A stretch of DNA of 64,000 nt from Antedon mediterranea (lineage: Eukaryota > Echinodermata > Crinoidea > Comatulida > Antedonidae): the NCBI RefSeq assembly GCF_964355755.1, contig NC_092680.1, positions 6,363,001 to 6,427,000 on the forward strand, written 5' to 3'. The position numbers and the translations under genes are program-made. The stretch's first letter is position 1, and each line of letters begins with the position of its first letter. The notes under the pieces are model-generated. The model was not told where the DNA came from and searched no databases. It saw only the letters and a program-made list of their open reading frames with translations. This document shows positions 16,301-59,150 of the stretch, piece by piece.

Positions 16301-17171
16301 AGGTAGATGGTTATTGCACTGTCACGTGAATGATCATTTAGCGGCTGGAATGGAAACTACGTATATAGTTTACGAAAAACCGAGTAAGTCTACACAAGAT
16401 TATCAAAATATAAAACATGCATCTACATTCCTAATAGTAATGTAATGTAAAGAAACAAAGTTCTAAGTTAAAACTGAATAAATAAATTCTTGAAATCAAC
16501 TGCTGCTAAAAAAAAAAGATACTATCGCTTGTTAATACATTTTACATCCAGATTTAGAGAAACTTTAAACCGCCCAGAGACTATATTATAGTCAACATTT
16601 ATGAACCGATATTCGAATCCGGGATCTTCTTCTTAATCAGATATCCTACCATTACGGTTGTAATACAACATGTACAATATTGTTCAAGCCTGTTTTCCTG
16701 TTGACGTTATTCGACGCTATAATCATCGTTGATCATTAACAGTTCAACGCGAAACGATCAAGTTGAAGTGATAACGATAACGAGTACCTTTTCCTGTAAA
16801 TCGTTTTCATTTCAATGTTTACGTAGAAGATCGCCGATTATTGTCAACGATAGCGTCGACTGACGTCGACAGGAAAACAGGCTTAAGTGTACGTGTATGT
16901 GGTATATTCCACGATTTCATGTTATTACGATGTGTTTTAATTGCTCTCTTCTTTCAATTTAGCTTCTCCACCAGTAACTACTCAGAAACCTATTCCAATC
17001 AAAGAAGATGATGATAATGTTGGTTTGATCGTTGCAGTTTCAATAGTTAGTGTATTGTTGCTTGTAAGTGTTATTATCAACATTTTGTTGTTCCGTAGAA
17101 CACCAACAAAGGAAGAATCAGTCAATTACAATAATAGGGGACAGACCAACAATGCATATACTATGTCATAA
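7312..17171 (+). CDS. Hephaestin/ceruloplasmin-like membrane-anchored multicopper ferroxidase, complete, 15 exons
   Basis: Predicted to oxidise Fe(II) to Fe(III) at the cell surface. Exons: 7312-7475, 7970-8217, 8535-8747, 9167-9307, 9819-9985, 10356-10479, 10936-11107, 11267-11541, 12075-12283, 12726-12870, 13427-13639, 13980-14190, 15212-16035, 16264-16383, 16963-17171. They join to 1144 aa, close to hephaestin length. Start: ATG 7312 has A at -3 and G at +4 and opens a signal peptide ([19 protein letters not shown]). Three repeats of two cupredoxin domains follow, then one TM helix (about residues 1090-1112) and a short tail. Trinuclear-site histidines: HPH (126-128), HSH (186-188), HFH (1012-1014) and HCH (1054-1056). 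Type 1 site in domain 6: H1009, C1055, H1060, M1065. The iron-site ESNLMH and D1059 are kept in repeat 3. The type 1 Cys is Ser in domains 2 and 4. Numbering is mine, from the joined exons. Confidence 0.92.
10070..10209. mobile_element. MITE, AAGCTCTGTCTACACTATC family, copy c
   Basis: Sits in intron 5 of the ferroxidase gene. Left end ACTCTGTCTATACTATCAAA, right end CTTGATAGTGTAGACAGAGC then TTA, with ATGCCCAAC and CACATTTTTTGTCAC inside. Both ends match the family consensus in inverted orientation. Confidence 0.65.
10746..10880 (+). repeat. tRNA-derived SINE, short copy
   Basis: Lies in intron 6 of the ferroxidase gene. It contains an A-box-like TGGCCGAGCGGTTAAAAC, typical of Leu/Ser-type tRNAs, and a B-box-like GGTTCGATATTCACTCC, followed by TATAAACCGTAGATCCAATG. 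It aligns along its length with the longer copy at 50521. The B box is degraded and the 3' body is missing, so it is a truncated or old insertion. Confidence 0.65.
13300..13314 (+). repeat. Poly-C tract (15 C)
   Basis: An uninterrupted run of 15 cytosines in intron 10 of the ferroxidase gene, followed by TCCCACCACCC. A second run of 13 C occurs at 49841-49853. Such runs are prone to length error in sequencing. Confidence 0.9.
14191..15211 (+). other. Intron 12 of the ferroxidase gene
   Basis: About 1.0 kb with no exon. An open frame from 14676 has no recognisable domain and no fitting splice signals. The stretch near 15015-15060 (GGGGTTACCCGGGTGTACTG and following) resembles the 3' body of the SINE at 50521, where GGTTACCCCGGTGTACTAG is read, so it is probably a SINE tail fragment. 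Confidence 0.5.
16685..16886. mobile_element. MITE with AAGCCTGTTTTCCTGTTGAC termini
   Basis: In intron 14 of the ferroxidase gene. The left end reads AAGCCTGTTTTCCTGTTGAC and the right end GTCGACAGGAAAACAGGCTT, an almost perfect 20 bp terminal inverted repeat about 200 bp apart. The interior is rich in further palindromic words (TCGACG, AACGAT). It has no coding capacity. No second copy was noticed in this window. Confidence 0.75.
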
Positions 17172-19874: not shown

Positions 19875-22800
19875 TCACTGATATTCTAAATCGTCCATTG
19901 CCACACGCTCTGCCGTGTCCCTACGATCATATTGATAATCAGATGTTGACGCAATTAGCTGACGTTCGTCAACATTTTCGATAACAATTTCATCCTGTGC
20001 AACAATGCGTTTATCAGAGTCCTCACGCGTCGTATGCCCTGCTGGCTGTTCAGACGCGTCTAATTGTATTTCGACATCATCGTTCTGCTCATCAGCAGAT
20101 GCTCTTGGTGGTTCCATTTCTACTGTATTCGAGTCTGAACGCACTCGAGGATCATCACCGTTGGATGTTGCGATTGGCTTAAACTTGGCTTGTTGTTTCT
20201 CGCGGTGTTTTAAGAAGAAATAACAACCCCAGCAAGTAAACACCAGAAAGCCACCAATTACGAGTAATAATATTTGCCACCACGTCAAACCTGCAAATTA
20301 ACAATGTAATTGTTAAATATATATTTTTCAGACAGATCCGTACCCCATTATTTTCCTAATTAAACAAATATTGACTATGTAGGAACAGAGTCATTTTGCA
20401 TATAATATGACAGCTGCTGATGTCACATTCAGATTGTTTTGATTCAACGGTATTGTTTTAAACAACGCTAGACCGGTTTGTTTTCATACATAAGGAATTC
20501 CGACTTTTACTTTAGTACAGTATGTAGCTGCTGGTCGTTAATACTCTCGCACGCAGAATCGTAAACGTTTATTTTCCGCGGTATTTGGGGCTTTTGCTTA
20601 TAATACATGATGTAAGTCAAGTACCGGTAGCTGTTTACTGGATTATACTATGTGAAACAAGGGAATTACTGCCACGATAAGAAAGACACAAGTTGATGTT
20701 AATTAAGTGTATGTTTAGGATAAACTTCATCGATGTGGATTTATATTAGGAAGATCATTAGGCCTATTAGGCATGTTTGAAAAGTCGGATATACGCTACC
20801 TTACCTGACGTAAACAAGTGTGGTAAGTACACACGATTTATTTTTTACTTAAATAAACTAAAACATTCGAAATAACTGTCCTTTATTACATAACTATAGC
20901 TGAAAATAATAACAATGTTATTGATATGTACTAGGCCCATAATGAGAGCTCCCTCAGCGTTGAACACCTTGTTTATAGCAGTCTTATTTTTCATTAATTA
21001 TTCCTACCAGCTACCAATTTATCTACTCAATGCTTGAGAAATGTAATAAAATATTGTCCATTATGTAAAAAGTAGTTCCTAATAATACTGCTTATTAACA
21101 AAGCTTTTACTAGGTGGTAGAAATTATTTGTCGCGTCAGAATTAAATGGGTTACTTCAAATCTAGGATATGTATGAGCGTGTTTTATTTGTGACCCGGTC
21201 GCACTACTTTTCTTAACATGTCGATCTGTGTCTCACGTTTATATATATTTTTCTCTGTACATTACTGAACACATCACCCTTGCCTTGACTAATCAGAATG
21301 TTTTTATATAATGTTTAATTAGCCTTCACAATTAAGGCTCTGTAGAAAATACTTTGATGTAACAATTCAATTACTGGAGTTATACATTGACATGGTTAAA
21401 CTAAATTAATTATATCAATTATTTATACTAACTACAATATTGTACATACATATTTGTTAGATCTACATTATTAATCATTGAGACTAATGGAATTTGTAAG
21501 TGATCAGCTTTGACCAGCTTGTAAAGATAGATAGACAAATAGCAGATGTGTTTTAACAGAACAATTAACTAATTAAATTAACTTAAGAGAGAACGTTGAA
21601 TTATAGACAAGAGCACTTTTCTGAAGTTCAAGAATATCTATGTGGATAGCACTCGCGACAATACTACCACCCTTAAATTGCTCTGACGCCTGCATATATT
21701 GGGTTTACAAGTGGATCGATAGAGCATGATATACCTAATGCTAGTATTGCGTACAATAATAGCACAATGCCATAAACAAAGACCATGAAAATTACAATCT
21801 AATAACAAAAAAATGCTCCATAGTCAGAGTTTATGGCCATCTATAACATTGTAACTAGTCCGTTTGTATGTGCGTACGCCTCATGAATATTCATTAGTTT
21901 TGTAATTTTTACTTGAGTTATTAATATGGATACTGTATTGTATTGTGATATTAGTGACTGCGATGGTATGCTGTTGTATAATATTGATAATGATTTTTAA
22001 ATATTATATATAAACGTACCAACCTTAAAAAAGCAATATTTTGTGTTACACTAAAACATATTCAAAATATTACAAAAAACCGTCAATGTATTACTTACTT
22101 GTATTTGTTTGTTCTCCATTTTCATTTGAATTTGAAATTGTAGTCGTCGACAGGGCTGTGGATGAGGTATTGTAAAAAATGTAATATATAAAATTTAATA
22201 CAATAGTGTAATTTCTGCAAACCTTTCTAATTCGTGACCACCATACATGCAGTCAGTACCTCCAAATCACCACCCTCGATACCACCGTAAAAACACCACA
22301 ACTACACCCTCAACACACCCGTGCAAACACCACAACAGATATCATTCATTACTATACTAACTATAAGAGACACTATCTCAACGGTATACTGTATAAAGGT
22401 AAACGTTATAATTTGATTTGATTTAATTTTTTAACGAAAATAATAAATACCGCACACATAATATGACATTATAATGTTTTAAACTTTGTCAGGTGAGGAG
22501 AATTCATTTGACAACATTTCCTTATTAATTTGAATTTATACGATTTGGAAGAGGGTGGGGGAATGCATTTACAGGCCGTATTCAGTTATTACAACAAACT
22601 ATTACGTAAATTAGTTGGATGAAGTACATAGATCGAAGTTTCTCTAACGATAAATCAAGCTTAATATATCCAGTTCTAGGCCTAATAAATGAACTACTGT
22701 AATTTATAATTAAATTAAACAACGTATTGTTTTGGAATTTATATGCAGAAAAGCAAAACAAAAAATCGGTTCACTTACTAGGTGTTGCTGTTGTTAAAGA

Positions 22801-23045
22801 CAATGCCACCGTTATTCCTACACCCGTTATTCCCAGAACCTTCGTTATAGACATTTTATACATGTTTATCTATAAATTAAGACATAATCATAAATTATTT
22901 GCATCGCATATACTAATTGTAATTATAAATTATTATGACACCAATCGAAATATGACGCAACAATAGCGTCTAATCATTAATATTAAAGTAATTAAGACAA
23001 TTTAAAAGCATATCTATATAACATATAATATACATTTTTCTTACC
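19875..23045 (-). CDS. Small single-pass type I membrane protein, family member A (185 aa), unrecognised family
   Basis: Coding exons on the minus strand: 22863-22779, 22155-22099, 20290-19875, with phase-1 introns and good signals (donors GTAAGT twice). A noncoding 5' exon ending at 23045 (AG|GTAAGA) and an acceptor at 22870 fit upstream. Protein: signal peptide (MYKMSITKVLGITGVGITVA), a Ser/Thr/Asn-rich ectodomain of only about 20 residues (LSTTTISNSNENGEQTNT), then SLTWWQILLLVIGG opening a TM helix (about 51-72), KHREK stop-transfer, and an acidic tail of about 110 residues with no known domain. The first Met could also be the one three codons later. The pairing of exons rests on phase and on the matching plan of the neighbour at 29193-31419. 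No homologue is recognised. Confidence 0.72.
20291..22098 (-). other. Intron 2 of membrane-protein gene A
   Basis: 1.8 kb of AT-rich sequence between the ectodomain and TM exons. No extra phase-1 exon was recognised on the minus strand, which matters because such an exon would enlarge the very short ectodomain. No clear repeat family was identified here. Confidence 0.4.
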
Positions 23046-23829
23046 TTTATTTAATCGTACACAATTTTTGTTGCATTTGCACTCATTTGCTATACCATTT
23101 TTAAATGTGCTGGATAAATTTATATAGGCCTAAGTAGAAATGAAACGCGCTCACAATACGCTTACTTACACAACGCGATAGCACTGATCACATTTCTTAC
23201 GGTATACAACTTGAATAGAGCCTTCGATCAATATAGCCAATAGCAATTACATATACACATCGTACACTATATCGTTTTTGCAATATTCTTCCGCTCCTTG
23301 TTTTTGTTAGCAAACAAATAATTGCGTCAATGTTTATGATTCACAGATACATAATCATACGCGTTGCGTCATGCCTTGTTACAGTTTAGTGCACTCAGCC
23401 TGCACATCAGGCGTCACATTTGATGCTTAGTAAACGTCAGAGGACATGTCCAATGCGTCGACATAGATTTTTTACCTGTAAATTAAGTAAATAGAATTGA
23501 ATAAAGACAGGTATTTTTACCAGGTAATACGTATTCATCAGGGCTTTTGTTCACATTAAGCTATGACGATTTTACAGTATCTTGCCAAACTAAAAACACC
23601 ACCACACCCTAGTAGTATAATTTTCCAGCGTTTATACGTTCACATTGTAATTGTCATACAATTTGTGGGCGATGTGCTTAAATAATGTAATGTCTCTTCT
23701 GATTTGTGTGCACTGATGCATTTATCATGCTTTTCGCATGTGGTTGCTTCGAATTTGTTGACATGGTTCTAGTGTCGATTCATAAGCAGTTGTTTTATAT
23801 AGGTTTTGTTTTTAATAAAGGGAGATCAG

Positions 23830-24079
23830 TAAAGCCTGGTTTCCATTAAAATCGCTACAGCGTTTCCATTAAAATCGCTACACGCGCAGATGTCGCCGAC
23901 GCAATCGGGAAGGCTCCCCGATTCATCGCAGTCAAATCGGCAAAGTTCAACGATGTTCAACTTTGCCGATTTTGTCGGCGATGAATCGTATACGCGTACT
24001 AGATCCCCGATAAACTCTAGCGTTTCCATAGAATCGCTACGCTCTGCCGTGTAGCGATTTTATGGAAACCAGGCTTTAC
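23830..24079. mobile_element. Non-autonomous DNA transposon with AAGCCTGGTTTCCAT termini
   Basis: Left end TAAAGCCTGGTTTCCATTAA, right end ATGGAAACCAGGCTTTACA, extended by ATCGCTACA / TGTAGCGAT, so the terminal inverted repeat is about 30 bp. The subterminal TTTCCATTAAAATCGCTACA block is duplicated in tandem at the left end. A second nested palindrome (GCCGACGCAATCGG / CCGATTTTGTCGGCG) fills the middle. TA flanks are possible. The minus-strand open frame inside it is not a gene. Confidence 0.75.
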
Positions 24080-24299
24080 AAGAGTTACGATATTTATTCT
24101 CATAGGCCTATGTATTATATGTTTACTTAATCAGATCCAAGAGGTGTGAAGTAAAATATATATAATTATTATATATTAAATACAGTTAAGAACAATAAAT
24201 TAATACATCCAGAACATTCAAACCTATAACACTAGATCCTCCTGTAACCTCCTCTTACCAAATTAATTTTAATGCAACATAATATCCGTTATAGTGGCA

Positions 24300-24545
24300 C
24301 CAAATTAAAATGGCACCTTAAAAAATTTCTTTTATTAAACTAAAACAAATCCTACTCCAAAAATAACTTGCAATATCGCAAAAAAAAGGAACAAACACGT
24401 TTATTTTAGTTTTCTGTGCTTCCATGGCATTAATCATTGTCTTGTCTTTTTGTGCCTTACTTGTTTGTCTGTCTGTCCTGTTTTGTTTCTGTATGTTTGA
24501 TTAAAAATCAATACTGTACTGTTATTATGAATGAATGAATGACCA
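24300..24545 (+). pseudogene. LINE 3' end remnant with (TGAA)n tail
   Basis: Reads KWHLKKFLLLN-stop near 24310-24345, like the last residues of CR1/L2-type ORF2, then a T/GTCT-rich 3'UTR ending in ATGAATGAATGAATGACC. The L2/CR1 group often ends in TGAA-type microsatellites. The upstream coding part is not recognisable. Confidence 0.4.
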
Positions 24546-26332
24546 AACTTTTATTATACAAAAGTACCATATTCGTACTTAGTATTGACTAATTGAGGGC
24601 GCTGATCTAGTAAATAAACTTCAGACTGAACGGAAGATTTTTTTAAGGAAAATATTTGCTTTTGTTTGATTCATTTCCCGCCAGTGCTTTTCGTAAGATA
24701 TTATTGCTAAGTTAAGAACCATTATATAAATGCTTAGCGATCATATAGTTCCAAACGTTGTAATGGCGTATCAGAAAATTCAGATTTACAGAAAAAAATG
24801 TAATAACGAGTAGGCCTAGGTATATACTATATTTAGATATATGAGAAAACTCAATCCATTTTGTCCGCCTATGTGTTAAGACAACTTCCAGTCCACTCAG
24901 CTGTAAATGAGTACCTGGTTGAAAATACTAGGGAGAAAAAACTGGCCGGTCTACCACATAATGCCGAGGCTTAGTACAATGAGCTCCTAACAGCTCATTC
25001 CCCTACGTTCAGAGAAAATGGGACTCACCTCACCTCATGTGTTAAGATGCTTGTGGCGATACACAGTGATGTTTCATGAATTATTGCAAATATACCTAGT
25101 TATTAGATGCACAATAAGATTGCAGCCATAAATACTAACTAATGATGTTATTGTAAAAATTAAACTGCACACCTCATATTTACTAATTTTGACACATAAT
25201 CACATTTAATATTCATTAATCGTACTTGTATATTTGTTTGTATTGACATTACTAAATCCGTGAACTTTAATACCTCGAGAGATAGAATATTTCCTCCATG
25301 GATAAATCAAAATTGTTAAACACTATCTTCATGCGGATGAATTTATTTAAGTATTAGCAAAAATAAACACATTGTCTAGTTCAAGCATTGGTAAATTCCA
25401 AGGTATCGTAGACTCACTCAAGAAAATGAATATTTATCTGTAGGCTAGGCAGATCCTTTGGTCGATAAGGGCATGCAATTAAAATCGAGTCGTTCCTTTG
25501 TTTTTCATGGTAATATATTTATTTATTCAGTTGATTGGTTATAGGCTAATAATGATCATCTGACAGGTGTTATTAAGTTGATCTTGATCAAATTTCAAAA
25601 ATAAATATTATGCTGCTTAAATTTAAATGAAACTGAGTCATATCGATAAAATACACATTGATGATAACGCTGGTGACAATTAGGACGTATTGTTACTTTA
25701 AACAATAAAATATAGGAGTTAGATAACCTGGTATTTTGACTATTAATTAATATCGTAGGTTGTATAAGACGCAACACAATAATGTACACGCAACGTCATT
25801 TGACCAATCACTGATGATGGCTCATCCGAACTTTCACTTGTCATTGGTATAACCGCACACGTCCTTTTGCGTTTCTATAAAAAAAAAACAATCAATAATT
25901 ATTGTACAGTGGTAAGGTTTACAGTATTGCACGTTAATTATAGATTTTATTATATACTTGTCTGGGTTGCCATAAACTACTGGAAATTATATAATACACA
26001 TTATTAAATACTCAATCAAATGACTCTCGGTAGGAGACAAGAGTGAACAGCACGTGACTGAAAATCTTCATTGAACCACCTACGTAATTAGGTTATTATT
26101 TACCCATGAATAGGTATTATGTAAAAGAGAATTTAATTAACTGACCAACATTGATTAATAACACAAATCAATTATATGGATGGCGGAAGATCGTGTTATT
26201 TCATTGATTAACTGGCGTGTAAACTTTATTATACGTTGGAATGCAAAATACACTGTCTAAAGGATTTTAAAAAATATTTTAAATTTTGTAAAATATACAT
26301 GCACCTTAAAATTGAATCCAGGATAACACGTT

Positions 26333-26458
26333 AAGCTTGTTTCCCACCTGGACGCAACGCAACGATGCATCGCGATGTACTTTAAGTGAGTTGACCAATC
26401 ACAACCGTTAGTTAGATTATTTATCGCGTCGTGATTGGTAAAATTACTTGCGGTGAGT
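26333..26458. mobile_element. MITE, GGTTTCCAC-GACGCAACG family, worn copy
   Basis: Begins AAGCTTGTTTCCCACCTGG then ACGCAACGCAACG, then GTGAGTTGACCAATCACAA and a facing GTCGTGATTGGTAAAATTAC. This matches the copies at 28073 and 63642. The right terminal repeat is not preserved. Confidence 0.6.
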
Positions 26459-27200
26459 TGTACCCAAATGTTTTAATTATGTTTACTTTCACATGTACTT
26501 TAAATAAAATAAATCGATTTATGTTTTATAAAATAAAATAGACATCCAAAGACTAGCTATAAATACGGTGGTTATTGAATTTAAAATATCAATTTCGAAA
26601 AAAAGCAATAAACAACAAAAGAGCTACAGACGGTGAGCATTAATGGATTATCGATAAAGAAAATGGTGGTCTCCATACAAAGCAAACATATTTAGTCTAC
26701 AAATCTAAATACTAATGTTTTGCATTGCTGTTTTGAAGACACTGGGAATATTATCTTGTGACACACCTCAGATCCTTGTCATTAATTGGGGATTAATGGG
26801 TCACGTGATATTAAATAAATGTACTATAAGCACTCTTAAAAGTGCGGTCTCGTTATACGTAATTGGGTAGGTTTACTGCAATTTCGGTGAGCAACACCAT
26901 ACGCGACAAGAGGTTGTTGATGACCGAGTCACGTTCGATAAAATCGGAGTGCTCTTTAAAAGTAGGTGTGCTATAAAACAGATAAGAACGTTTTATATTT
27001 GTACCATTTTACTCATCAACAATAATTGTTTGTATTTTGTTTAGTAGTCCATTTCGTGCCTAGCTTACTTGGATAAACCGGAAATTTACCAGTGCACTCT
27101 CTAAGGAGCAATGATACTGTTCCTTGAGCATCCATCTCAATAATCAACTACGCCCAACAGTAACTACCACCTTCGTTGATAGTTTGGACGTGTCTTGTCG

Positions 27201-27542
27201 TTCTACGTTTTTACAATCACTATTTCCGTTTATGAACAAAGGACGGTTAAGTTACTAAATAGGCTAAAGGTTAGTTAAAATAGGCCTAAACGCCTAAGAT
27301 AAGGAAGGGAAAATGCAGGATTGTGAGGGTTTTTGTGTATTGTATGACGTTTTTGACACTGAACGATGTTCGGACGTTCTTATGATTGTTTTACGTTTTT
27401 GCAATTCATTATTTTCGTTTATGAACAAAGGACGGTTATGTTGCTGAAAAAATAGGCCTAAACACCTAAGATAAGGAATGAAAAATGCAGGATTGTGGGA
27501 GATTTTGTGTGTTGTATGGCGTTTTCGACACTGAACGATGTA
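27201..27542 (+). repeat. Tandem direct duplication, two units of about 155-170 bp
   Basis: Both units contain CGTTTATGAACAAAGGACGG, then AATAGGCCTAAAC.CCTAAG, ATGCAGGATTGTG, and end in GACACTGAACGATGT (27356-27370 and 27528-27542). They differ by small indels and substitutions, so the duplication is not very recent. Both overlap a spurious minus-strand frame. Confidence 0.75.
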
Positions 27543-28072
27543 TATCACTTGTAACTGATCCATGAAGTTAATTTTGATATTAATTGGCGACTGATACTTC
27601 TGGGAGGTGTATCAACCAGTTTGTATACATAATATACGTTTAATGTAAATACATTATAATAAGGTGCCATAGCTTTAGACAAAACGTACACACGGAGACG
27701 TAGTTTAATTATAGATACTATAAATATGTAATTAAAAATAAAAAGTCTAAATTAAGTTTACTAAAATACTTTAGCATTCATTTAATTTAACATTGTGCTC
27801 TGAGATAGCTTGATGTTAGGTAGTTAACGTATGACGTTTCATTCCACAAAGATCAATTTTACACTCGCATTGTATGCACGGAACCCTTATTTTCTTTCAA
27901 CTTTATCGATTCCTTTATCAATTTAATAACCATTGTGATATTATTGACTGCGACAAATAGAACATCCAATATATGACATGATAATTGCAAAACTGATATT
28001 ATACAGTTATACAGTATGATGTAATGCTTAAAATAAATAAAAATGCCATATACTGAGAGCTGATTTCTAAAA

Positions 28073-28227
28073 ATTGGTTTCCACAGGACGCAGCGCAAGG
28101 ACGTAGACGCAACGCAAGTGAGTTGACCAATGACAAGCGAAAGTTTGAATAATCCATCGCTTGTGATTGGTCAAATCCCCTACGTTACGTTACGTCGTTG
28201 TGTTGTGTCTCTAGTTGGAACCAAGCA
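28073..28227. mobile_element. MITE, GGTTTCCAC-GACGCAACG family
   Basis: Left end TTGGTTTCCACAGGACGC, right end TCTAGTTGGAACCAA. Inside, GTTGACCAATGACAAGCG faces CGCTTGTGATTGGTCAA around a short centre, so nearly the whole 155 bp is one imperfect palindrome. No coding capacity. Confidence 0.75.
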
Positions 28228-29192
28228 TACGATCTGTATCCTTTTATGTATATTTATTTAAATTACAAACAAACAAAATTATAGTAATAAATAATTATAG
28301 AGTAAGTATTATATTATATTACAATCAAAATTACAAATATATTAAAACTGTTACTAAATTACAATATTATTTTTTGATTTGATTAATATGAAATTAATAG
28401 TGTGATATCTAATATAACCACAAGTTATTAAAAAAAATAGACAATAATACCGTAGGCACGACTACTCGTCGTGATGGAAACAGTAAAAAACAACATCTTT
28501 TTATAAACGTAATAATTACTAATTATATATAATCAATATACAGTAATCTGTAAAGATAATTAGAAGAACGTAATATTTTGTTATTTTGGGCAATAGTAAT
28601 ACTTATGGGCTCTTTACTACTGAGCCAGAGAAGAAAGATTTAACTACTGTATTTTGAATAAACGATGCATGTTCTTGCCACATACAGAGAACCAATTTCA
28701 AATATAGTTTTAAATACTCAAGTTTATTGAAAACAGTTTCCGAAGAGCAACGTTTATCTGCATAATACTGTTATCAAAATGTTACTGTACAAAATAAACA
28801 TACTTTAATTATGTATTTAACATTTATAAGAAATAGATTACAGTAGAAATCAGCTGTTTTAAAATTGGTTGAAGTTAAGAACTGAATGGTCAATTTGTTC
28901 ATTCTGCCAGTGTCTTTCTTGATGGACATTTTGTAGAGTCATATGTGAAAAGTGACGAAACGTGTTTCTTAACCAAAGTTCAATCAGTTTCAATTTAATT
29001 TAAATTCTATTGCATTCTATTGGCAATTAGAGTGGTTTCTATTGCATAAACTGTACATACAAATTATGTCTATACATGTTCAAGTCCTTTTTAGTGTTGA
29101 AGCAAAAACAAATCTCTAAAAAAAGATCAACGAAAAAACCAATAATTCTAAAAAAAAGTAGTAATACTCGTTCTTTCACAAACATACTTGAA

Positions 29193-32100
29193 TCAAACAA
29201 ATGTTGATGCTCCTAACAACGGATGCATTGTGTGTCCCCATTGCAAACTTTGTGTGTCTGACATCATCAAATGATGAGTTAAATGTACAGGCCTACTGTC
29301 GTTCCCTAGTGTCGGTTGCTCTACATAGAATGTGTTCTTTTGTGGATATGAAGGCTTAATTCCAGAGGACATCGGTGGTGGAGGGTAGTAGAAACCAGGA
29401 GAATTATAATCACGTAGTGTTGAATATCCCTGTAATTTCATTGCCTCAACGAAACTATTATTTTTGCGCAAATGGTTTGCAGACTGTTCGTTAATAGTTA
29501 CTGAACTTTCAGTGCGATTGTCTTTAACTTTCTGAACTTTACTTTTCTCGTTGTCTTCATTACCCTGCTTCCGTAAATAGTTCTTGCAGCAGCAGTAGAG
29601 TATTTCCATTCCAGCAAGTCCACCAATAACAACAAGAACAATTTTCCACCAAGCAAAAGTTCCACCTGTCAAAGTGAAAAGATGACAAAAATTAAATATT
29701 ATTATCTGTATTGTTTTTCTTTTCTTTTATACGTACATAAAATCAAAACTTAAGACAAAAGACCAACAAAATATAAATTAGGTCCATCTGACATTAAACT
29801 TTTAAACAATTAATCTGGTTTAATTTTACTTTTAATTGATCTTGTTGCAAACTTAAAATTAGTGTGTGCTTAAACTTCTTCCACGTACGGTTTAGTATAT
29901 ATTAGCACTTTTTCAGCGTAGGCGTTAGTACAGTTGTTTATCTTACACATCGATAGCATGAGAAAAATAATGATTGGTACGTGAACGATATCATAAATCA
30001 TCATCGCACTGTTGTATAAAATTATTTAATTTTTAATTGTGTTCATATCTAATATAGGTACATGCTACTTACTGCATCTTTTTTCATGTATACAATTTCA
30101 AAGTAAACATGTGTCGAATTAGTAGAAATATGTAAACTATTATTATGATAATGATAATTTAGAAAATATTATTTATTAGATTTTAACGATGTTTTTTTTT
30201 ATTTCGTACAACTTGAAACCTCCCTAAGCTATTATTTTTGTCGTTGTATTCTTATGTCGGTCGCCTTCAATTACACAATAACCGACAATTACTGATGAAA
30301 TATTAGATTATTGGCTTTGCATAATTATCATATCACACTGATTGCTCAAGTTTCACTATCGTATTTATCACTAGAATATAGGCCTAACAATAATGTCTCC
30401 AAAATTACGACATCGAAAACTAATGTTAAAACACATGCAGACAATAGACTGACATGACGTCATACAGTACCGTATGTTCTAAGCCGTACAGTACCGGTAG
30501 GTTGTCGAATTTTCAAAGCTCCCTATTAATAGCGATAGTTTATTGTCACTTACATGGATGAGTGGACTTTATTTTGTTTTAAAAGTCCACCGAAATTAAT
30601 CCAAAATAATAATGAAAACTGAACAACTTAAACAAAGACAATTAATTAATTTATACTTATAATGAATATCAACTTATCAATGGTTCTATTATAGTTTCAT
30701 CTGTATAGAGTCTATTTACCTTAATGCCAAATATGCATCTATATCGTTTTACGAATGACAGAATTATTTATACTATTATTAATTGAAAATGAGAAGAAAT
30801 TACAATAAAGGTGGGTGATTCCCATAAAAGATGAATACCAACTTACAGTACTTACACAAATAAATGTGAATTTAATCACTAATCGATTTTATTTAAAGTT
30901 TTTATTTTAAAATTTAACATTATTAAAACTAAATGTTTCTCACTTGATGAGTATGCCCCTCCAGCACCCGTTTGTCTGCGCTGTCTCTGTGGGCGTTCAT
31001 TTGATGCATCTTCGGATTCTTCGAAGGGAAAAGATAATCAACAAAGTCATTATCATGAGAATTTATCATTGAAAGAAAATATAATGTTTTTTCTTCGAAA
31101 ATAGGTTTGTACATGTTTCAACCTGTAGCAAAGTTATAACGTTCCGCCTCCATAATCCGTACCAGAGAGTATATTTCAATTATTGTTCTATTCAACTCTG
31201 CTCCATTGAATGAAACATTTACTGTTTCAAAATATAATAGAAATGCTGTTTTTCTGTTCATTTTTGTTTCTTCATATTCAGAGTGCCTACTTACCGCTGT
31301 AAACTGCACTTGCTAATAACCCCAGGGAAGTAACGGCAATATACAGGATGTATACGACGTTGTAACCCATCACAAACAGCAGCCGTATACATAAACTACT
31401 GACGTATGCTGGTCATCTTCTGAAACAGAGTTACATGGGTCATTGCAAATGAGAAGAATTAAAATAAAAATACAATTATTTATCGTACTGAAAATTGAGT
31501 AAATAATAACGCCTATACTGCATTTCAATTCCTACTGCAGATGCTTATAAAATTTATAACGAGGATGTTGATGGAAAAAAGAGATAAATGAACTATAAAA
31601 AACAAGATTGAAAGTCATTGAATTGTTCTAAGAAAGCTTAATCTGTCAGCGAAAATGACTATTATTAGTTTTTCAATAATCCCGTATAGATTTAAACGCT
31701 ATATTGGAATCAATCAACATAAATCACCAACAAATACGTTGTTGTATTTAGTTAGATGTTTCTTAAATACACGGGTATGCTGCAGTTAGTTTAAGGAAGT
31801 ATGTGTAGTAGGCCTAAGCCTACATTTTGAAAACTTGGAAAAACACAACGTCATCAATATCAAATAAAGTAGAAACATGTTAAGAAGCTTCATTTTGCGC
31901 TGTGAAACACGAATGAATGTATGATTGTTATGTTTTCGTGTTGTAATTAACCCGAGGGTATTTCATTGTTATTGACACTAAATCCCCTCACCACGGGAAA
32001 CTATGCATGTTTAATTGAATCATCTTATTAGGCAGTCTTATTATTTCTATTTTTAAACCTATATTAAAGGCCTAGTAGTATTATATAGTATATATTATTG

Positions 32101-33792
32101 ATTAATAACTGTAGCTTGGTGGTTAACGTGCTTGCTCAATCCTAACTTAGTGCCAGGGTCCTTCCTGTAATTGGCGAGTTTGTGCTCGCTTTTGGATGTG
32201 TATGAATTAAAATTTTAAAAAAAAATTAAAAAAATAACTGCTTACAAAGTCTCTCAGATGTTCTTCAATGTCTCGGATTGTGGTGGTCTCGAAAAGGATT
32301 AGGCCCGAGATTTTTTGGTGGTACAGTACTTATCACAGTCAAAGATGCTTTCGGTTGTATGACTGACATAAGTTGACTCGCTTAGTTTCCAGAGTATCTT
32401 AAAGCCCGCCGAATACAACTATGACAGCTGCTTGCTGAGAAAGCATGCTATTTAAGTCAATACAAAATCTCTGTCCTAATAGCAAAAGGAATCTGATAAG
32501 CGTGACATGTGAACATTTGAATGCTACAATTTCTAATAAACGGAACTAACCGATGGAAAATTAATTAATTAAATTTTTCAACAATTTTAACCTTAAATGA
32601 CCAAAATAAAAACGTAGTTTAACACAGGAGCGGTAGGCCTACATCACGTAATTACAATCAAAACTTTATCTTTCATCTATGTTCTTAGGCTAGCTATTAC
32701 TACTATACTTGAGTTGATCTTCTCCCCCTTGGCCGTTAAATAACTCAATTAAACCATTACGCCCCCAATTTACAAAACTCGTTCATGTCGACGTTAATGA
32801 TAAATATGCAAAATCAATCAAAGGTTGTGTTTTTCCCTAGTGATAGTTTATGGATAGATTATCATATAGATTAAAATATTAAAATATTCAATATTGTATT
32901 ACCGTATTCTATAGAAAGAGTGATATTCTAAAATCGCTCCACGTTAAATCTGTGGCGGTAATATTATGATTTAAAAAAGGGATACATTCGGATACATACT
33001 AGTATGAATACCTTGCTCGATCACGTTAAATCTCGGTACACAGCTATCTTATGTGAATTGGTTGCCAGTATGTTCTAAAAAAATGTTTTATAATTTCTTA
33101 AAAAAAACCTTTACTGTATTCAACTTGTCCACAATGCAACTCTACTCTCCCTCCTTATCTCTAAAATGTTGTTATTTTGTACATTCGTACGTATTTCTAT
33201 ATCATCACTAAAGCACGTGTCAAAAGGTTGGCTAAAAGTCGTCAAGTTGGTAATGTTAAATAGCCATGTACAACGCTGATGTAGTAAAGTAAAGTAGGTC
33301 TAAATCTGATCCCAAAAAAACCCCCAAATACATCTTTTGCCAATCTGGAAACCTACCTTATTGCAATCAACATTTTAATTTGCAACTGTACCTTTTCTAC
33401 ACCCATTGAGTTACTGAACCCCATTCGTATTGTGTGTAAACTATTTTAAAGATAATTAATTGACATACTATTTGAATTGCGAAACAGGTTTTACGACTAA
33501 TACAATTTACTTTCTATTTGGCCTATAACCTATTTAATTTAAGCCCACTGTTTAATCAGCGCCAACTTAATTAGACATTTCTGATATTGTGATACACAGA
33601 GCAAACATAACACGGTATGATGGCGGTACTAATAACGGTACATAGAGTGTATCTATTAGGAATCATCTATTACGCATCTAATGATTATAATATATTCTTA
33701 TATAATATTGTATGATGTTTACTAGAGAAAAAAATTGGCCAAACAACATTCAATAATCTACATTTATTTAAATTAATAATAATAAACTTACC
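29193..33792 (-). CDS. Small single-pass type I membrane protein, family member B (207 aa), paralogue of the gene at 19875
   Basis: Coding exons on the minus strand: 31370-31295, 31018-30944, 29665-29193, joined by phase-1 introns. The first coding exon probably starts at 31419 after a noncoding exon ending at 33792 (AG|GTAAGT). Protein: signal peptide (MGYNVVYILYIAVTSLGLLA), an ectodomain of about 28 residues with a furin-like RQRR (37-40), then GGTFAWWKIVLVVIGG opening the TM helix and CCC at its cytoplasmic face. The tail of about 130 residues has YSTL (YxxPhi sorting type), a YYPPPP proline stretch, and a C-terminal STFV that fits a class I PDZ ligand. It shares exon number, phases and the WW.I.L.VIGG start with gene A. 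The tails do not align. Function unknown. Confidence 0.72.
29666..30943 (-). other. Intron between ectodomain and TM exons of membrane-protein gene B
   Basis: About 1.3 kb, AT-rich, with one TGACGTCA palindrome near 30456. No further exon was seen. Confidence 0.4.
31420..33789 (-). other. Presumed 5' leader intron of membrane-protein gene B
   Basis: Runs from the donor at 33791-33790 (AG|GTAAGT) to the acceptor TTTCAG at 31425-31420. It contains a weak tRNA-like/SINE-like stretch near 32105-32195 (TAGCTTGGTGGTTAACG) and no coding sequence I can support. Confidence 0.35.
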
Positions 33793-33896
33793 TTTTACTG
33801 CATTGGCCTATACAGATAATTTACTATTATTCGATCAGTGGACATCCATCTCGCATCTGAGATATAATCTAGTTACCTGACATTAGGCACTGCATG

Positions 33897-42926: not shown

Positions 42927-45900
42927 CTATAGGCCTGTTTGTGATGTCGAAACTTTCCGTGCTGTTCGTGAGTTTACACAGCATTTTGTAAAAATGATTC
43001 TAAATTGTTTTTGAAAGCTAGATGAAGAAAATGCGTAAATAAATGGGTTAACACAGCTGCTAAAATACATCAAACACAGTGCAAGAATATACGTAGTCCC
43101 AACTAGCTTTTGATTTATCATCTTGATCATACTCATAGGATCAAACACTTGCCAAAGTAAAAATGCATGAATTGGCAACCAGAATATTGCAAATGCTACA
43201 ACCAACATTAAAACAATTTTGGTTGTCCTTATCTTCTTTTTTGTTTGTATCTTGCGGTTCCTGTTCCTCATTGAAACTGAAGTGGACGTTGATTTTCTCA
43301 TCCAAACTACTTTTAATATCCTGACGTAACAAATTGCAATGACAGTAAGCGGAACAATGTAGATTGAACAGAATGTGTAGATTGTATACGCCTGTTGTTG
43401 AAAACCATCTCTGAGTATTGTACCGCACACTTTGGCACCGTCTTCAAATACCGTTACTTTGTTTAGCACAGCGGCCGGTAGTTGCAGGAGTAGAGAAACT
43501 TGAAAAAAAAATAATACAAGCAATTATTATCGTTTTTGTTTAATAATTTTAACACTTACAGTAAACTAAACTACGGTATATAACTCATAGTAAAAATAGC
43601 TTTCAAACATCATACTGTAATCAATTACCAGTTTTAAATTACTTCTTGATAGATTATAATCAATTAAGATTACAAGTTGGCAAGTGTTCAAAGCCAATAT
43701 AGATTATCATTATCTTGTCCATTTAGAATGGAATGTTTAATTTTATTACAATATTATAACGTCAATTTACGAATATCGGAAGATTTATGTACCATTATAA
43801 TTAAAATTGAAATAAGTTTTGACCGAGTTATACATAGCGTGAAGATGCTGTAGCCAAATTATAATTAAATATAGAAAATGTAAAATATCAGCTAAAATAT
43901 TGGTTGCGTTTACTTGTTAACTGCCGTAACAGTATTATGAGCTTAGCAGCAGTTATCTGTCTTGCGCCCCGAGCCGCGGCGGCGCATATTTAATTATATA
44001 TACATATGTAAGGCAAGAGATATAATATAATAAATTTGAAAAATACTGTATGTAGGCCTACTGTCAAATGATAAATGTCAATGACCACAACGGCTAATTT
44101 TTAAAGAGACGACATACATCCTCAGGTAATTGTCTGGAATCAGTGATGGTACGGTATCATTAAAATAATCTTTTAATATGTACAATGTGGTTGCTAAGGA
44201 TACAGCCCGTAAGACCGACTATTAAACTGAACATCGAACGATTTGCCTAGACATCGTCACAAAATAGGTCTATTAGTTTAAGGTTTTAATTCACCATTAG
44301 GTTTCACTGGTTGTTTTAGTTAATCGTTTAGCAGTCACGTTTCACAATACACATCCAATCATGAATTGAAGGATTATGTACAGTCGTATAAAAGAACACA
44401 GACAGGATCATATGGATATAAAGAAAGGTTTATCCTTATAGTAAGTTATTCAAAATTATAGATTCGCCACAGCAGTCATGATTATTTCACTGCACCAATC
44501 CACTTTACTTCCTCTATACCAGTTAGAAGTGTGTGTTTTTTTAGGTTTGTTCAAAGGTTAGGACATGTTATTAAGCTGTTAATTCAGTTGCTGTCTCCAC
44601 AACAACATTTGGCGATTATCTTATAAAACAATTAATATTCAGTAACGACATGCCTTGTGTATTACAGGCGATACATGTAATAATAATAATAATAATAATA
44701 TTTATTCGGTCATCAGTAAAAATAACCAGGAATGAGAATAGGCTAAAGCCCAAACAGATTCTGCACTCACTCCATACAACACATGTGATGCTTTATTACG
44801 GACTGTTAATATGGTACTGCCGAAATCTAGATACTCACAGGTACGAAGCGGTAAGCATTTACCTAACCTAAAGAAAACACAAGCATTAAGATAATTTATG
44901 AAGAAAGAAACGTTGGGATAAAATATTGACGGAACTATAAATAGAATGTTTGCTTTTATCGGGATTGTGAATTTAATTCCCTTTTAATCATATATGACTT
45001 AACTTCACTGATTTCTCGTAAATACCTGTATCATCATTTCCATTAAATAATTCATAATATGATATTGTTTAATGTTCCCCTTGTCTCAAATATTATATCT
45101 CATCAGATAGATTTATTATTATTATTATTATTATTATACAGAACTCATTAGAATATGCTGTGTTTTTGCGTACACTATTTTATAAAATAATATTATATAC
45201 TATTAATTTATATCCATAAAACAATTGTAGGATAGGATGAAAACACGTGATTTTTCTTTACGATTGTCTGAGAGATTGAAACTAAGCAACATTCTGACTA
45301 ATAAAGCATGACAGTTAATCTAAAGATTTTGGATTATTTGTATGAGTTTGTAGATTTCAGTCAAAACCAAACAAGTTGTCTATACCAAATCCCTTCAATA
45401 ACATTGGCAATGGTAAAAAAAAAAGTTCAAGATTTATAATATAGACCCTCTACAAAAAAGTGCAAGAACTATATAAAAATAGCATTAAGAGAATGTTTAC
45501 AATCCTAAACAGTTAATCGGAACATAATGTACAGTATTCAATTTTTCAATTTTCAATTTATTCCACATTTATTTAGTCATCAATTACAGTACATCATAAT
45601 TACAATACAACTGAAAACAGGGATCCTGCATAAAAAAGCTGTAGCTTCGTTTTTTTGTAGGACCCTTTTACATAAGAACAAGTATATAGAACTTAAATAA
45701 ACAAAGGTGTTGTTAATCAGCATATAGTGATAAAAAGTATTTTTTGACCTGTTTTTTTATACATTTATTTTGTTTCTTTAAGATAACCGGTTTATTACCA
45801 CCATTACAAGTGAATTCTTTCCACAATTTTGGTCCATATATGTGTATAAACTGTTGACTGCAAGTTAGTCTTGTGAATGGAATTTCGAAATCAGTTTCTG

Positions 45901-48900
45901 TTCTGAGGTTATGAGTAGGCCTAATACTGTCACAGTAATTAAAAATATTTAAAATGTGATGTGATAATTCATTGAATTTTACGTTTGCCATAAATCCTAT
46001 GACGTTTACTTTGTAAATATCATAAGCGTTTAATATTTTTAGTTTCTTAAACAGTGGCTCTGAGGCTTGTCTGGATTTAGAGAAGGTAATGCATTTTACA
46101 GCTCTCTTTTGGAGTTTTAGTATTACTTCTAACGTGCTCTTGTATGTATTTCCCCATATTAAGTTACCATACTGAAGGTGAGGTAATACTAAGGTGTTAT
46201 AAAGACTAATACGGACTTTATGAGGAAAGAATTCTCTTACTTTTAAAAGTATACCAATTGCCCTAGACATTTTTTTTCTAATAAGCTGTATGTGATGTTT
46301 CCAGTTAAGATTTTCGTTTAAAATTACATCTAGAAATGTCACATTTTCTTTTCTATGTAATAACACATTATTCATTTTTATTTTAAACTGGTTTTTGTCA
46401 AAGTACTTTTGGTTAGTTCTAAAAACAACGTAATTAGTTTTGCTGACATTCAGTAACAGCTTATTTGCTTTAAGCCATACGTTTATTTTTTCTAGTTCAA
46501 TATTCATAGTATGGTTTAACATTGTAGGGTCATCTCCCCTTGTTATACAAGTTGTGTCGTCAGCAAAACTAATTATATCTATTTTACTACTTGCTCGACT
46601 TATATCATTGATGTAAATCAAAAACAAAAGTGGTCCTAAAACAGAGCCCTGTGACACCCCTATATTGGTGTTTTTTAAACATGATGATCTACCATTGTCA
46701 TACACATATTGTTTGCGGCCACTTAAATAGTTTCTAAACCACATTAAAACGATGCCTCTTATACCATAATGCGCCAATTTGCTCAACAGAATACTGTGAT
46801 CGATAATGTCAAACGCTTTTGACAAATCCATAAAGGTAGTAAGTGCATATTCCTTTTTTTCAAATGCATTTAATATTATATGGACCAAGTCGATCATAGC
46901 ATGAGAAGTTGAGTGTTTGTTTCTAAATCCATATTGATTGTTGCTTAACACTTTAAATTTTATAAGATAATTGTATAATTGATTATGGATAATCTTTTCA
47001 AAAACTTTCGAAAAAATGGGGTAAAAAACAGCGATATGGGACAATAGTTTGAGGCCAAATGGCGGTCCCCTTTTTTATGTATAGGAACTACTTTGGAAAT
47101 TTTCAACTTCCCTGGTATCAGTCCAGTTTGAAGTGATAAATTAAAAATATATGTCAGCGGCTTTAAAATGTTGTATTTTACTTCCTTTACAACTTTTGCT
47201 GAAATGTCCCATCAAATCCGGGGGCTTTGTTTGAATCCAGAGATTCAATAACTTTTAGTACCTCCTCTTCATCAACATAGCAACAAAACATTGAGTTGCG
47301 TTGTTTGTTTGTGAGGTATTCAGAATATTTTGTCGTAGTAGACTCAATATTGTCTTGAACCTTACAACCTACATTAATAAAATAATCATTAATGTGATTT
47401 ACAACATTTTCGCAACCATGTATAGTTTCATTGCTATGTGTAAAAGAAGTTGGAACTTTAGTTTTTCCTTTGTTCGGATCAATTACATCATTTATAACAT
47501 TCCATGTTTTTTTAATATTACCATTTGTTCGATTGAAAAGATTTTCATAATACATCTTTTTGGCGATTTTGCACGTGCGTGCAAAAGCTTTTTTAAATTC
47601 TTTATAAGCATTTTTGTTTTTTACAGTAGGGTGTTTTATGAACCTTTTATACAGTACATTAATGGTATTTTTTGTATTTTCTCATTATAAATTATCATTC
47701 TTTTTTATTGTATTGTTATACCATTGTTAGAAACTAATAAATGTTGAATTATTATTATTACATGCTTTCTTTTACTAGACCTATAACCCAAAACTCATCC
47801 AGGGCTGCTTGAATTTGTCATACTGTTTTGATGATTTTACAGTTTTTTTAAGGTGTTTGTTATATAGAAACTTAAAATTATCCAGAAAATCATTATAAGC
47901 GATTTCTGGATCAGTCGCTTCATATACTCAAAGCCACTCTGCACTTAATAAATCACTATTTAGTTTCGTAATATTTCTATTGTTAACTATATACGTGTCA
48001 CATGAGACTGAGGTGCCTTTATTCATGTGCGTGTTTACGTGGGAAGACGAAGCAGAGTGTGTTATTTGATATACTGGTAAATGGTCGGAAATGTCCGAGA
48101 TTAGTATACCAGATAGAACTTTTTCGGAAATTGTATTTGAAAATATGTTGTCAATTAGTGTTACTGACTGATCTTGTATTCTAGTTGGTCTAGATATAGA
48201 TGGATAAAACGAGTGAGACATCATTATTTCAATAAAATCATTTACATCACTGCATGTTACATGTTTAAGCAGATTGATATTAAAATCTCCCATGATATAA
48301 CATGGTTTACCTTCTTTGTCTATAGCAGTGAGGACATCTTCAAGTGAATCATTAAAAACATCTATTTTCATGTCTGGTGGTCTGTAGACAGTACCAACAA
48401 TTGCATTTTTACACTTTTTTTCAATTATCTCAATAAACAGACATTCACAGAAATTAATTTTCAAATCGGTTCTTGTTTTGACCTCTATAGTATTTGAAAT
48501 AAACAAGCCAACACCACCTCCTTTTCGATTTTCCCTGTCTAGAGCATGGAAATCGTAGTTTGGTAAGTATGGTCTAGGTGATGTTTCTTTAAGCCATGTT
48601 TCTGATATGCCAATTACAGTGAATGGGTGTTTAATGTCGTTTAAACAAGTAATTAATTCATCTAAGTGTTTGTTAATACTTCTGATATTATAGTGTAAAA
48701 ATGAGTAGCTGATATTATTTATTTATTAACCGAGTCATTTAACTGGTCTGTGCTCATATATGAGCATGTCTCTATCGTACATATTTTATTGCTAAGACTA
48801 TGATCAGTTAGTTCATCCTGTTCGTCAAAGTTGTTACATAAGCCCCTTTCTCACAGATGTGTCTGCAATATACCGGTACAGTGCTGGCGTCGTGCCGGTA

Positions 48901-51900
48901 TCGTTACCGGCATATACCCATTCTCATCGGACTATCGTGCCGGAAATATAACCGGTATATACCGGCTTTCTGTGAGAAAGGAGTCGGGCATATTCGGCCA
49001 ATAAAAAGTCTCTGACAAAATAATTATTGAGGGCGTCCTTTATTGTTATTATTTTTGTCTAGGGATATATGGCGGCGAATGTTAGGTTACAGATTATTAT
49101 CTTCCTTTATAGCATATTTATGCAATACATGCTATGTACAGTATATTGTGCATATATTATACAGGTACAGCAATTAATTAGCCGTCAATCGGCAATCTGT
49201 AAAACACCTTAGAAGGCTGTACAATTTACAAGGCGACGAAGGGTCAGGCTAGTTAGGCACCAACATTAACAAAGAGCTGGCCTAGGCTAGGCCTGCTATA
49301 GATTATGCTACAAATTTCTTCTTGTCCCCTTATTTTAAGCAGCTCTCTTATCTCATTATCCCTCCAGTTCGACATTATTATTGTTAATTGAATTGAATCG
49401 GCGCCAAAGTGATACACTTGACCGCGCAAGGTGTCTGAAGCCTCGACAGGGAACCCCGGAATATAACGGCGTTACGTTCTCACAGAATGCCCGTCTGGCA
49501 TTGCGGGGAATATCCCTAGAATATTACTAGGTCTAAAGCAGGTCATGTCGATGCCGGCATGGTGCCGGCATGATGCCAAGACGACCCGTTCTCACAGAAA
49601 ACCATACCGGCATGGTAATGGTATATTCCCGCAATATTCCTGGCACTCAGCTCTGTGAGAAAGGGGCTATAGAGTAATAGGATTGAATAATATATCAGTT
49701 TGATTTGATAGATTGTTATTGTTTATACTTGTTGCGCTTTCAGGGTTTGCTTGAGTAGACTTTTCCATGTTACTTTGGTTATTTCGGTTTTAACTTCTGT
49801 CTCTTGTACGATGTACATTCATACTAAACATCGTCTCCCTCCCCCCCCCCCCCTACCAATGAGGAGCTAGGCTTATCCTCTACACCGTGGTTGACGAAAT
49901 GCCAAAATCTTGAAATAAGCTCTGTTTTCTTTAATTTTCTCAAAATATAATGTTATTATAGTAATTTGATTACATTTTGAGTAGACGTCTCCGCCATTGC
50001 TTTCTATATATTTAATAGAATTTATATGATGCAATCGAGAAATCGTCCTTTTCTTACATACCATCTTAGTACATTTAGCATTAGTCGTATTTTGATACGT
50101 ATTAAAATTGGTAACACGATAATTTTTTCGCAATGCGTATTCAGATAATAATATTATGATATCTAGTATTACAATTTAACAAAATATATATTCGAAAAAT
50201 GTCTAAGAGTATTATGGGTAGGGGTATCAATCGGGGAAATATATTTAATGTGGATAATCATGAATGGGCCTATAGGCTGTGTATTAATAAAGCTTTATTT
50301 GGTTATCTGTACAAGCGCTATTCACAAAAATCGAAATACAGTCGCAAAATTAATTTAAAGAACCTGAAATAGTCTGCCCTCTATTGACAAGTATTAACTA
50401 AATTACTACTGTATTACTATACTATTACTATACTATATAAACTATTTTTCATTACCTTTTATGAGCCGTATATCGTATTAAATTCATATACTGTATATAT
50501 ATTCATATATTCTTTCATTCGAGTGAGTGTGGCCGAGCGGTTAAGACAGTGGAATCGTAATCCATAGCCATAACATCGGCAAGGGTTCGAGGCTCACTCA
50601 CTCCGTGGTTCTGGTGATAGAACGAGTCTCGGATAAGGACTATAAACCGTAGGTCCAGAGTACACACTGGCTCGTGTGCACTTTAAAGAACCTATAGAGT
50701 ACATCTTTCGAGACGAGTAGCCTAGGGGGTTACCCCGGTGTACTAGTATACACACAGCCACTGTCACTAATCAAGAGGGCTCCTTGATTGTCAGCATACG
50801 CCGTTTAGGGTCATCCTCTATCAATAAGGTGTAATAAAAAAATAAATTTTAAAAATAGGGAGCAGTGCTTTTGAAGTGCACGTAATATACCAAACACCAA
50901 CCAATGCGTTTTCAAAAATGTTCCATATAATACCTACCTATCCATATGCAAACAATTATAATACGTGCTTTTCGAATACTCCTAGAATTTCGAGACTGAA
51001 CTGCTTTAACAATCAATGAATATCGATCAATGGTCACCAACATTAGCAGAAAACATGTTACTTGTGTTGAAACCTGTAACAAATAATACGAAAATGTTTG
51101 CTATAAAATATGATATAGGCCTACATAAAAGCTTTTTGTATTGTACATGATTTATTAACTACTCAATTTCGATCCATTATAGTATATAATGTCTGTGCCA
51201 ACTCATGGCATCTCTTTTTATAATCATGGTCTATGATTGATGACGTGTAAGAAGCAGTGTATGAGATATTTATAAAAAAAGAATCTTGTTTTTTGAAAAA
51301 TGTAGGTCAATATTACCAATTTGTTGAAATATATTTTATAGAATTAAACAATATTTTAAAATCACGATTGTATTGTATAAAACGCGTACAGTATTTCATT
51401 CTGTATGCCTGCTTATATACAAGTATTACGTTTTGCTTACGTCACAAAACGAATCGGGTATTTTGTTCTAGTTTTTGTAAACACCGTTTGTTTGGCTTCG
51501 CTTAGAATACCATGCCTATTTAATCTCAAAACAAACCAAAACATGTATAGGTAAGTGTTCGATCGTCGTCAACATCAACGCTAACTTCGATATTGAGAAG
51601 GTAATCCCTAGATCCTGATCCGAATTACTTTCATTACTATTTTTAGAGGTCAGCATATCATTTCGAATAATAATTACAAAGTTTGTCCAATTGCAATCAA
51701 ACACATGTCTAGACAGTATTCCAGAGTTTAATCAATGATTCAATGAATGGATAAATAAAGTATTTGACCTTAAACCAAAGGTAATTAGTTATTTGTCACA
51801 CAGTGACTTTATTAATAGAAACGAATCTTTTTTTTTGTATGTTATCAACTGCACAGAGCTCGCCTTTTCAAGATAGGAACTCGTAAGTCATTTGTTCTTA

Positions 51901-58958: not shown

Positions 58959-59150
58959 CTATGGAATAGAAAAAAAAAATCAAACTACTTTATAGCCTAA
59001 TTACTATTACAGCAAATGAAACTCGAACCGAAGCGTGTTTGAAGACCAACATCATTGGATGTGTTTGAATGGTCAGAAAATCATCTCCAACTGAAGTAGT
59101 AAACGAGTGCGTCTGGGTGATTTGCTCTTGGGCTAATGCGAATGTTTCTG

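What the first reader, a model, noticed from the sequence alone, without database searches (positions are those of the whole stretch)
19875..33792. Tandem pair of tiny-ectodomain membrane proteins with identical gene plan and no recognised family
Two minus-strand genes 6 kb apart share a signal-peptide exon, a 19-25 codon ectodomain exon and a TM-plus-tail exon, with both introns phase 1. The TM helix in both starts with Trp-Trp and runs into I.L.VIGG. Ectodomains are only about 20-28 residues and the tails are unrelated in sequence. This looks like a fast-evolving paralogous family of small type I membrane proteins (adaptor, co-receptor or mucin-stub type). The common plan is seen directly; the role is unknown.
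Basis: partly seen in the sequence, partly recalled or inferred. Interest (0 to 1): 0.78.

Follow-up and report, generated by a model that had tools for sequence, protein, structure and literature searches.

The report
Two crinoid orphan small membrane-protein genes
In a feather-star-type (crinoid) genome, two neighbouring genes appear to make small proteins that cross the cell membrane once and carry almost nothing outside the cell; they are probably old duplicates of each other with no known relatives, which is interesting but not extraordinary.

Summary
Two minus-strand genes, A (22863-19875) and B (31370-29193), each consist of a signal-peptide exon, a 19- or 25-codon exon and a TM+tail exon, joined by phase-1 introns. 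In each interval between the signal-peptide and TM exons, a scan for phase-1/1 internal exons returned only the proposed one. Both TM+tail exons score as coding: above about 1,000 local non-coding windows, and best in the proposed frame. The genome is a crinoid's: it encodes the crinoid peptides crinotocin and GLRFHKGAPF exactly. Only the TM region is alike between A and B (BLASTP E = 2e-5; about 2e-5 to 7e-5 against random TM segments). The WW.I..VIGG start occurs nowhere else in 354 Mb. Signal peptides, ectodomains and tails are no more alike than shuffles. So A and B are most likely an old tandem duplicate pair. No Pfam family reaches its cut-off, and the weak hits match what an unrelated TM exon gives. 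The best functional guess, weakly supported, is a membrane-anchored cytoplasmic scaffold or sorting protein that works like the TRAP adaptors; membership is not shown. Rapid evolution and expression could not be tested. Modest interest.

The parts
22779..22863 (-). Gene A, first coding exon: signal peptide MYKMSITKVLGITGVGITVALSLTTATP, phase-1 donor GTAAGT
   Evidence: n-region with Lys, hydrophobic core, small residues at the likely cut; no signal-peptide predictor was run
22099..22155 (-). Gene A, ectodomain exon, 19 codons, phase 1/1, Ser/Thr/Asn-rich, one NTS sequon close to the membrane
   Evidence: the only phase-1/1 internal exon above threshold in the 22760-20300 interval
19875..20290 (-). 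Gene A, TM + tail exon: SLTWWQILLLVIGGFLVFTCWGCYFFLKHRE..., CxxC at the inner end of the TM, acidic tail with DERQLI, stop at 19875
   Evidence: coding score 0.169 against background maximum 0.072; single helix then unstructured tail; AATAAA at 19546
23045..23126 (-). Gene A, possible promoter (TATATAAA at 23126) and non-coding first exon with GTAAGA donor at 23044
   Evidence: consensus match only; the matching acceptor at 22869 scores poorly
31295..31370 (-). Gene B, first coding exon: signal peptide MGYNVVYILYIAVTSLGLLASAVYS, phase-1 donor GTAAGT
   Evidence: hydropathy 2.16 over 19 residues; no signal-peptide predictor was run
30944..31018 (-). Gene B, ectodomain exon, 25 codons, phase 1/1, with RQRR (minimal furin-type site)
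   Evidence: the only phase-1/1 internal exon above threshold in the interval; RXRR-type site arises in 3.8% of shuffles of this exon
29193..29665 (-). Gene B, TM + tail exon: SGTFAWWKIVLVVIGGLAGMEILYCCCKNYLRK..., Glu inside the TM, CCC at the inner face, tail with YSTL and YYPPPP, stop at 29193
   Evidence: coding score 0.090 against background maximum 0.051, best frame; single helix then unstructured tail; AATAAA at 28728
33792..33850 (-). Gene B, possible non-coding first exon (start not defined) ending at a GTAAGT donor at 33791; partner acceptor at 31419
   Evidence: donor score 7.6, acceptor 2.5; inferred only

Best explanation
A and B are two real, head-to-tail, anciently duplicated genes of a crinoid. 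Each encodes a small type I single-pass membrane protein: a cleaved signal peptide, a stub ectodomain of about 20-30 residues, one TM helix and an unstructured cytoplasmic tail of about 110-130 residues. With almost nothing outside, the working part is most likely the tail. The protein would be a membrane-anchored scaffold or sorting adaptor held in membrane microdomains by acylated cysteines at the inner face (CWGC in A, CCC in B). It would recruit cytoplasmic partners by short linear motifs (DERQLI in A; YSTL and a proline run in B), in the manner of transmembrane adaptor proteins (TRAPs). Shown: exon plan, coding character of the TM+tail exons, TM similarity, absence of other copies within the searches' reach. 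Inferred: expression, splicing, signal-peptide cleavage, acylation, partners, function. I put the gene-pair reading at about 0.8 and the adaptor or sorting role at about 0.3; the confidence given is for the gene-pair and paralogy claim, with the role left tentative.
For: Exon boundaries and phases. Coding score of both TM+tail exons in or above the range of 29 kinase training ORFs and above every one of about 1,000 local background windows. TM region: BLASTP E = 2e-5, shuffle p = 1e-4, first 10 residues after WW p = 1e-5, 2e-5 to 7e-5 against random TM segments. The degenerate WW.I..VIGG codon pattern occurs only at A and B in 354 Mb, also with 2 mismatches, with reversed control 0. AlphaFold2 gives one helix and a low-confidence tail for each. 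TRAP architecture as described in PMC2803307 and PMC4861716.
Against: No transcript evidence. Similarity is confined to about 15-30 TM residues; with WW neutralised it is only p = 0.003 against random TM segments. No DNA similarity beyond the TM exon start. Linear motifs are near chance: DxxxL[LI] p = 0.056, YxxPhi p = 0.82. No YxN or ITIM motif in either tail, so the classical TRAP docking sites are absent. The 5' UTR acceptor of A is weak.
Confidence: 0.7

Rival explanations
1. One transcription unit with alternative promoters and alternative last exons: all exons are phase 1, so B's signal-peptide and ectodomain exons could also splice onto A's TM+tail exon, giving one stub with two tails.
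For: Same strand, all four introns phase 1, symmetric cassette exons, B upstream of A.
Against: A has its own signal-peptide exon, a TATA-like element and a poly(A) signal; B has its own poly(A) signal.
Confidence: 0.1
2. Two unrelated small type I membrane-protein genes whose TM starts converged. Phase-1 introns after a signal peptide and before a TM are common in such genes (general knowledge, not tested here).
For: Signal peptide, ectodomain and tail are no more alike than shuffles; no DNA similarity around the exons.
Against: TM similarity of order 1e-5 to 1e-4 per comparison, and the motif is unique to these two neighbours in the genome.
Confidence: 0.15
3. B, or both, is a divergent member of a known small membrane-protein family (WBP-1/VOPP1, SCIMP, FAM163, TMIE).
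For: Sub-threshold Pfam hits for B: WBP-1 E = 0.0086, TMIE 0.039, SCIMP 0.11-0.16; none for two controls with the TM or the whole exon reversed.
Against: All are well under the curated cut-offs. The unrelated TM exon of the neighbouring multicopper oxidase gives hits at least as good (Cadherin_C_2 9e-4, SIT 0.0036, TMEM154 0.0045). B's ectodomain has no cysteine and its tail has no PPxY. A's TM+tail exon has no hits.
Confidence: 0.07
4. B is a membrane-tethered peptide precursor: furin-type cleavage at RQRR releases a peptide of about 14-18 residues.
For: RQRR in a 25-residue ectodomain exon.
Against: Such a site arises in 3.8% of shuffles of this arginine-rich exon; A has no such site; no amidation glycine before the site.
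Confidence: 0.05
5. Not genes: chance open frames in AT-rich intergenic DNA.
For: No transcript data; exons 1 and 2 are too short for coding statistics.
Against: Coding scores above all background windows, correct frame best of six, open frames of 138 and 157 codons beginning at good acceptors.
Confidence: 0.04

Closest known systems
Transmembrane adaptor proteins (TRAPs: LAT, NTAL, PAG, LIME, SIT, TRIM, LAX, SCIMP)
   Same: Stub ectodomain, single TM, long unstructured tail; a CxxC at the inner TM end in A, as in LAT, LIME, NTAL and PAG (PMC2803307)
   Different: No GRB2-type YxN and no ITIM in the tails; A has only 3 tail tyrosines; no sequence match over cut-off; cleavable signal peptides (LAT and PAG have none; from memory); seen here only in a crinoid
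WBP-1 / VOPP1 family (PF11669)
   Same: Small type I protein, cysteines at the inner face, proline-rich tail (B only)
   Different: E = 0.0086, below cut-off; no cysteine-rich ectodomain; no PPxY; A does not match
SCIMP (PF15050)
   Same: Short outside part, cysteines and basic residues at the inner TM end
   Different: E = 0.11-0.16, below cut-off and at noise level

Membership tests
TRAP adaptors | short extracellular part and one TM helix | tested here: met
   Sequence and AlphaFold2 models: one helix
TRAP adaptors | juxtamembrane palmitoylation CxxC (LAT, LIME, NTAL, PAG; not LAX, SIT, TRIM) | tested here: inconclusive
   A has CWGC a few residues before the first cytoplasmic Lys; B has CCC rather than CxxC; acylation itself not testable
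TRAP adaptors | several tyrosine-based SH2 docking motifs in the tail | tested here: not met
   No YxN or ITIM in either tail; 3 and 7 tyrosines
TRAP adaptors | phosphorylation by Src/Syk kinases in immune cells | not testable with these tools
   needs expression and biochemistry
SCIMP (PF15050) | Pfam match over curated cut-off 27 bits | tested here: not met
   12.8-13.3 bits for B, none for A
SIT (PF15330) | Pfam match over curated cut-off 27.6 bits | tested here: not met
   No hit for A or B; the unrelated oxidase TM exon gave 18.2 bits
WBP-1 (PF11669) | Pfam match over curated cut-off 28.1 bits | tested here: not met
   16.6-17.2 bits for B
WBP-1 (PF11669) | PPxY motif in tail | tested here: not met
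   0 in A and B
A/B tandem paralogue pair | same exon plan and intron phases | tested here: met
A/B tandem paralogue pair | sequence similarity above chance | tested here: met
   TM region only
A/B tandem paralogue pair | orthologues or intermediates in other crinoids | not testable with these tools
   No other echinoderm genome held

The most novel reading that the evidence does not exclude
A crinoid-restricted family of tail-signalling membrane adaptors, born by tandem duplication, in which only the TM/inner-face module is kept and the tails are free to diversify: an invertebrate counterpart of vertebrate TRAPs that arose independently.
Probability: 0.12. Interest if true: 0.55.

Novelty: new member of a known kind. 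Interest (0 to 1): 0.27.

Why it matters
Small single-pass proteins with stub ectodomains are easily missed by gene annotation and by domain searches. A duplicate pair that keeps only its TM start would be a simple test case of how tails diversify around a fixed membrane anchor in an under-studied echinoderm class. The practical value is mainly annotation, unless expression points to a specific cell type such as coelomocytes.

Tried and rejected
Third copy elsewhere in the genome: none by tblastn with either exon or by codon pattern at 0 and 2 mismatches. A looser WW pattern gave 14 further hits, mostly simple repeats, with 12 in the reversed control, so it was uninformative. An upstream alternative start (MKLLNMFLLYLILMTLCFSKFSK, near 31.89 kb) was considered; joining it at its GTAGGC donor to the B ectodomain exon creates a TAA, so it was rejected (by reading). 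PDB sequence search for B gave only chance-level TM matches (E about 0.1). Fold library search was not run: a lone helix gives meaningless matches. The B protein typed for searches carried one extra Glu at the exon 1/2 joint; the correct 207-aa sequence is, and one search used the exon alone with the same outcome. No paper on echinoderm TRAP-type adaptors was found in the library.

Full report
Setting. The window is C11:6363001-6427000 of a 354-Mb assembly of 18 contigs, in which matches fall on 11 large ones. The organism is a crinoid: the crinoid L-type SALMFamide sequence GLRFHKGAPFG is encoded exactly once, followed by KR, and the crinotocin sequence CFWRTCPVG plus Gly exactly once, both with zero reversed-pattern controls (peptides from PMC9793003). 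Neighbours are a collagen gene (about 1-5 kb), a multicopper oxidase of the ceruloplasmin/hephaestin type that appears to end in its own TM exon (about 7-17 kb), two reverse-transcriptase elements (37-49 kb), and rhodopsin-type GPCR exons spread over 43-59 kb on the minus strand.

Gene models. Reading the minus strand gives A = 22863-22779 / 22155-22099 / 20290-19875 and B = 31370-31295 / 31018-30944 / 29665-29193, proteins of 185 and 207 residues. All four introns are phase 1. The thresholds were modest and the matrix generic, so this is support rather than proof. The middle exon is symmetric, so a transcript that skips it would stay in frame.

Are they coding? A codon model trained on 29 kinase open frames from the same genome (30.9 kb) and local non-coding DNA gives 0.169 (A) and 0.090 (B) per codon for the TM+tail exons in the proposed frame. 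Training genes average 0.097 +/- 0.031. About 1,000 background windows of each length reach at most 0.072 and 0.051. The proposed frame is the best of six in each case. Exons 1 and 2 are too short for such a test.

Are they related? BLASTP of the two proteins gives E = 2e-5 over the TM region. Divided by region, only the TM exceeds shuffles (p = 1e-4); signal peptide 0.33, ectodomain 0.74, tail 0.20. Against random TM segments the score is reached in 2e-5 to 7e-5 of comparisons. With the WW pair neutralised it is reached in 0.3%, so part of the signal rests on the two tryptophans, although the ten residues after WW are themselves significant on shuffling (1e-5). The degenerate codon pattern for WW followed by I and ending IGG is found only at these two places in the genome, also with two mismatches. 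There is no DNA similarity beyond the start of the TM exon. The simplest account is an old tandem duplication.

What are they like? AlphaFold2 gives a confident helix at the start of each TM+tail exon and nothing confident beyond. Pfam gives no match over cut-off. B has sub-threshold hits to WBP-1, TMIE, FAM163 and SCIMP. A useful yardstick came by accident: the unrelated TM exon of the neighbouring oxidase scores better than any of these against Cadherin_C_2, SIT and TMEM154. Such hits are what a TM-plus-basic segment can give by itself and are not evidence of membership.

How might they work? With about 20-30 residues outside, ligand binding by the ectodomain is unlikely; the same argument is made for TRAPs in PMC4861716. 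TRAPs have a short outside part, one TM, a long tail with tyrosines and, in several, a CxxC acylation site at the inner face (PMC2803307). A has CWGC and B has CCC there. A's tail has DERQLI, the form of an acidic dileucine sorting signal; B's has YSTL and a proline run. None of these is clearly beyond what composition gives, and the SH2-docking motifs typical of TRAPs are absent. 'Works like a TRAP or a sorting adaptor' is therefore a lead of about 0.3; 'is a TRAP' is not supported. B also has a Glu within the TM and a minimal furin site in the ectodomain, both without a counterpart in A.

Verdict. The reading as a paralogous pair of small type I proteins is probably right; 'fast-evolving family' is untested, and the role is open. 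This is an ordinary kind of discovery, probable lineage-restricted small membrane-protein genes, with a clear set of tests.

Noticed in passing
23836-24080: Element of about 240 bases with inverted ends (ggtttccat..aaaatcgctaca), whose end (about 80 bases) recurs at 94-99% identity at many places in the genome: MITE-like.
   Followed up: no
24880-25000: Dispersed repeat of about 120 bases with many copies at 81-91% identity; on C11 at about 21.79 Mb its last 53 bases recur as a tandem array with a period near 59.
   Followed up: no
16941-17171: TM + short tail exon that appears to end the ceruloplasmin/hephaestin-type multicopper oxidase; useful as a control showing that an unrelated TM exon gives Pfam hits near E = 1e-3. 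Its joining to the oxidase is inferred.
   Followed up: partly
42927-58989: Rhodopsin-type GPCR exons (three 7tm_1 matches on the minus strand, together covering most of the model), with a LINE-like reverse-transcriptase element (45.7-48.7 kb) lying between two of them, that is, probably in an intron.
   Followed up: no
31829-31893: A second signal-peptide-like frame, MKLLNMFLLYLILMTLCFSKFSK, upstream of B that does not join in frame to B's ectodomain exon.
   Followed up: partly
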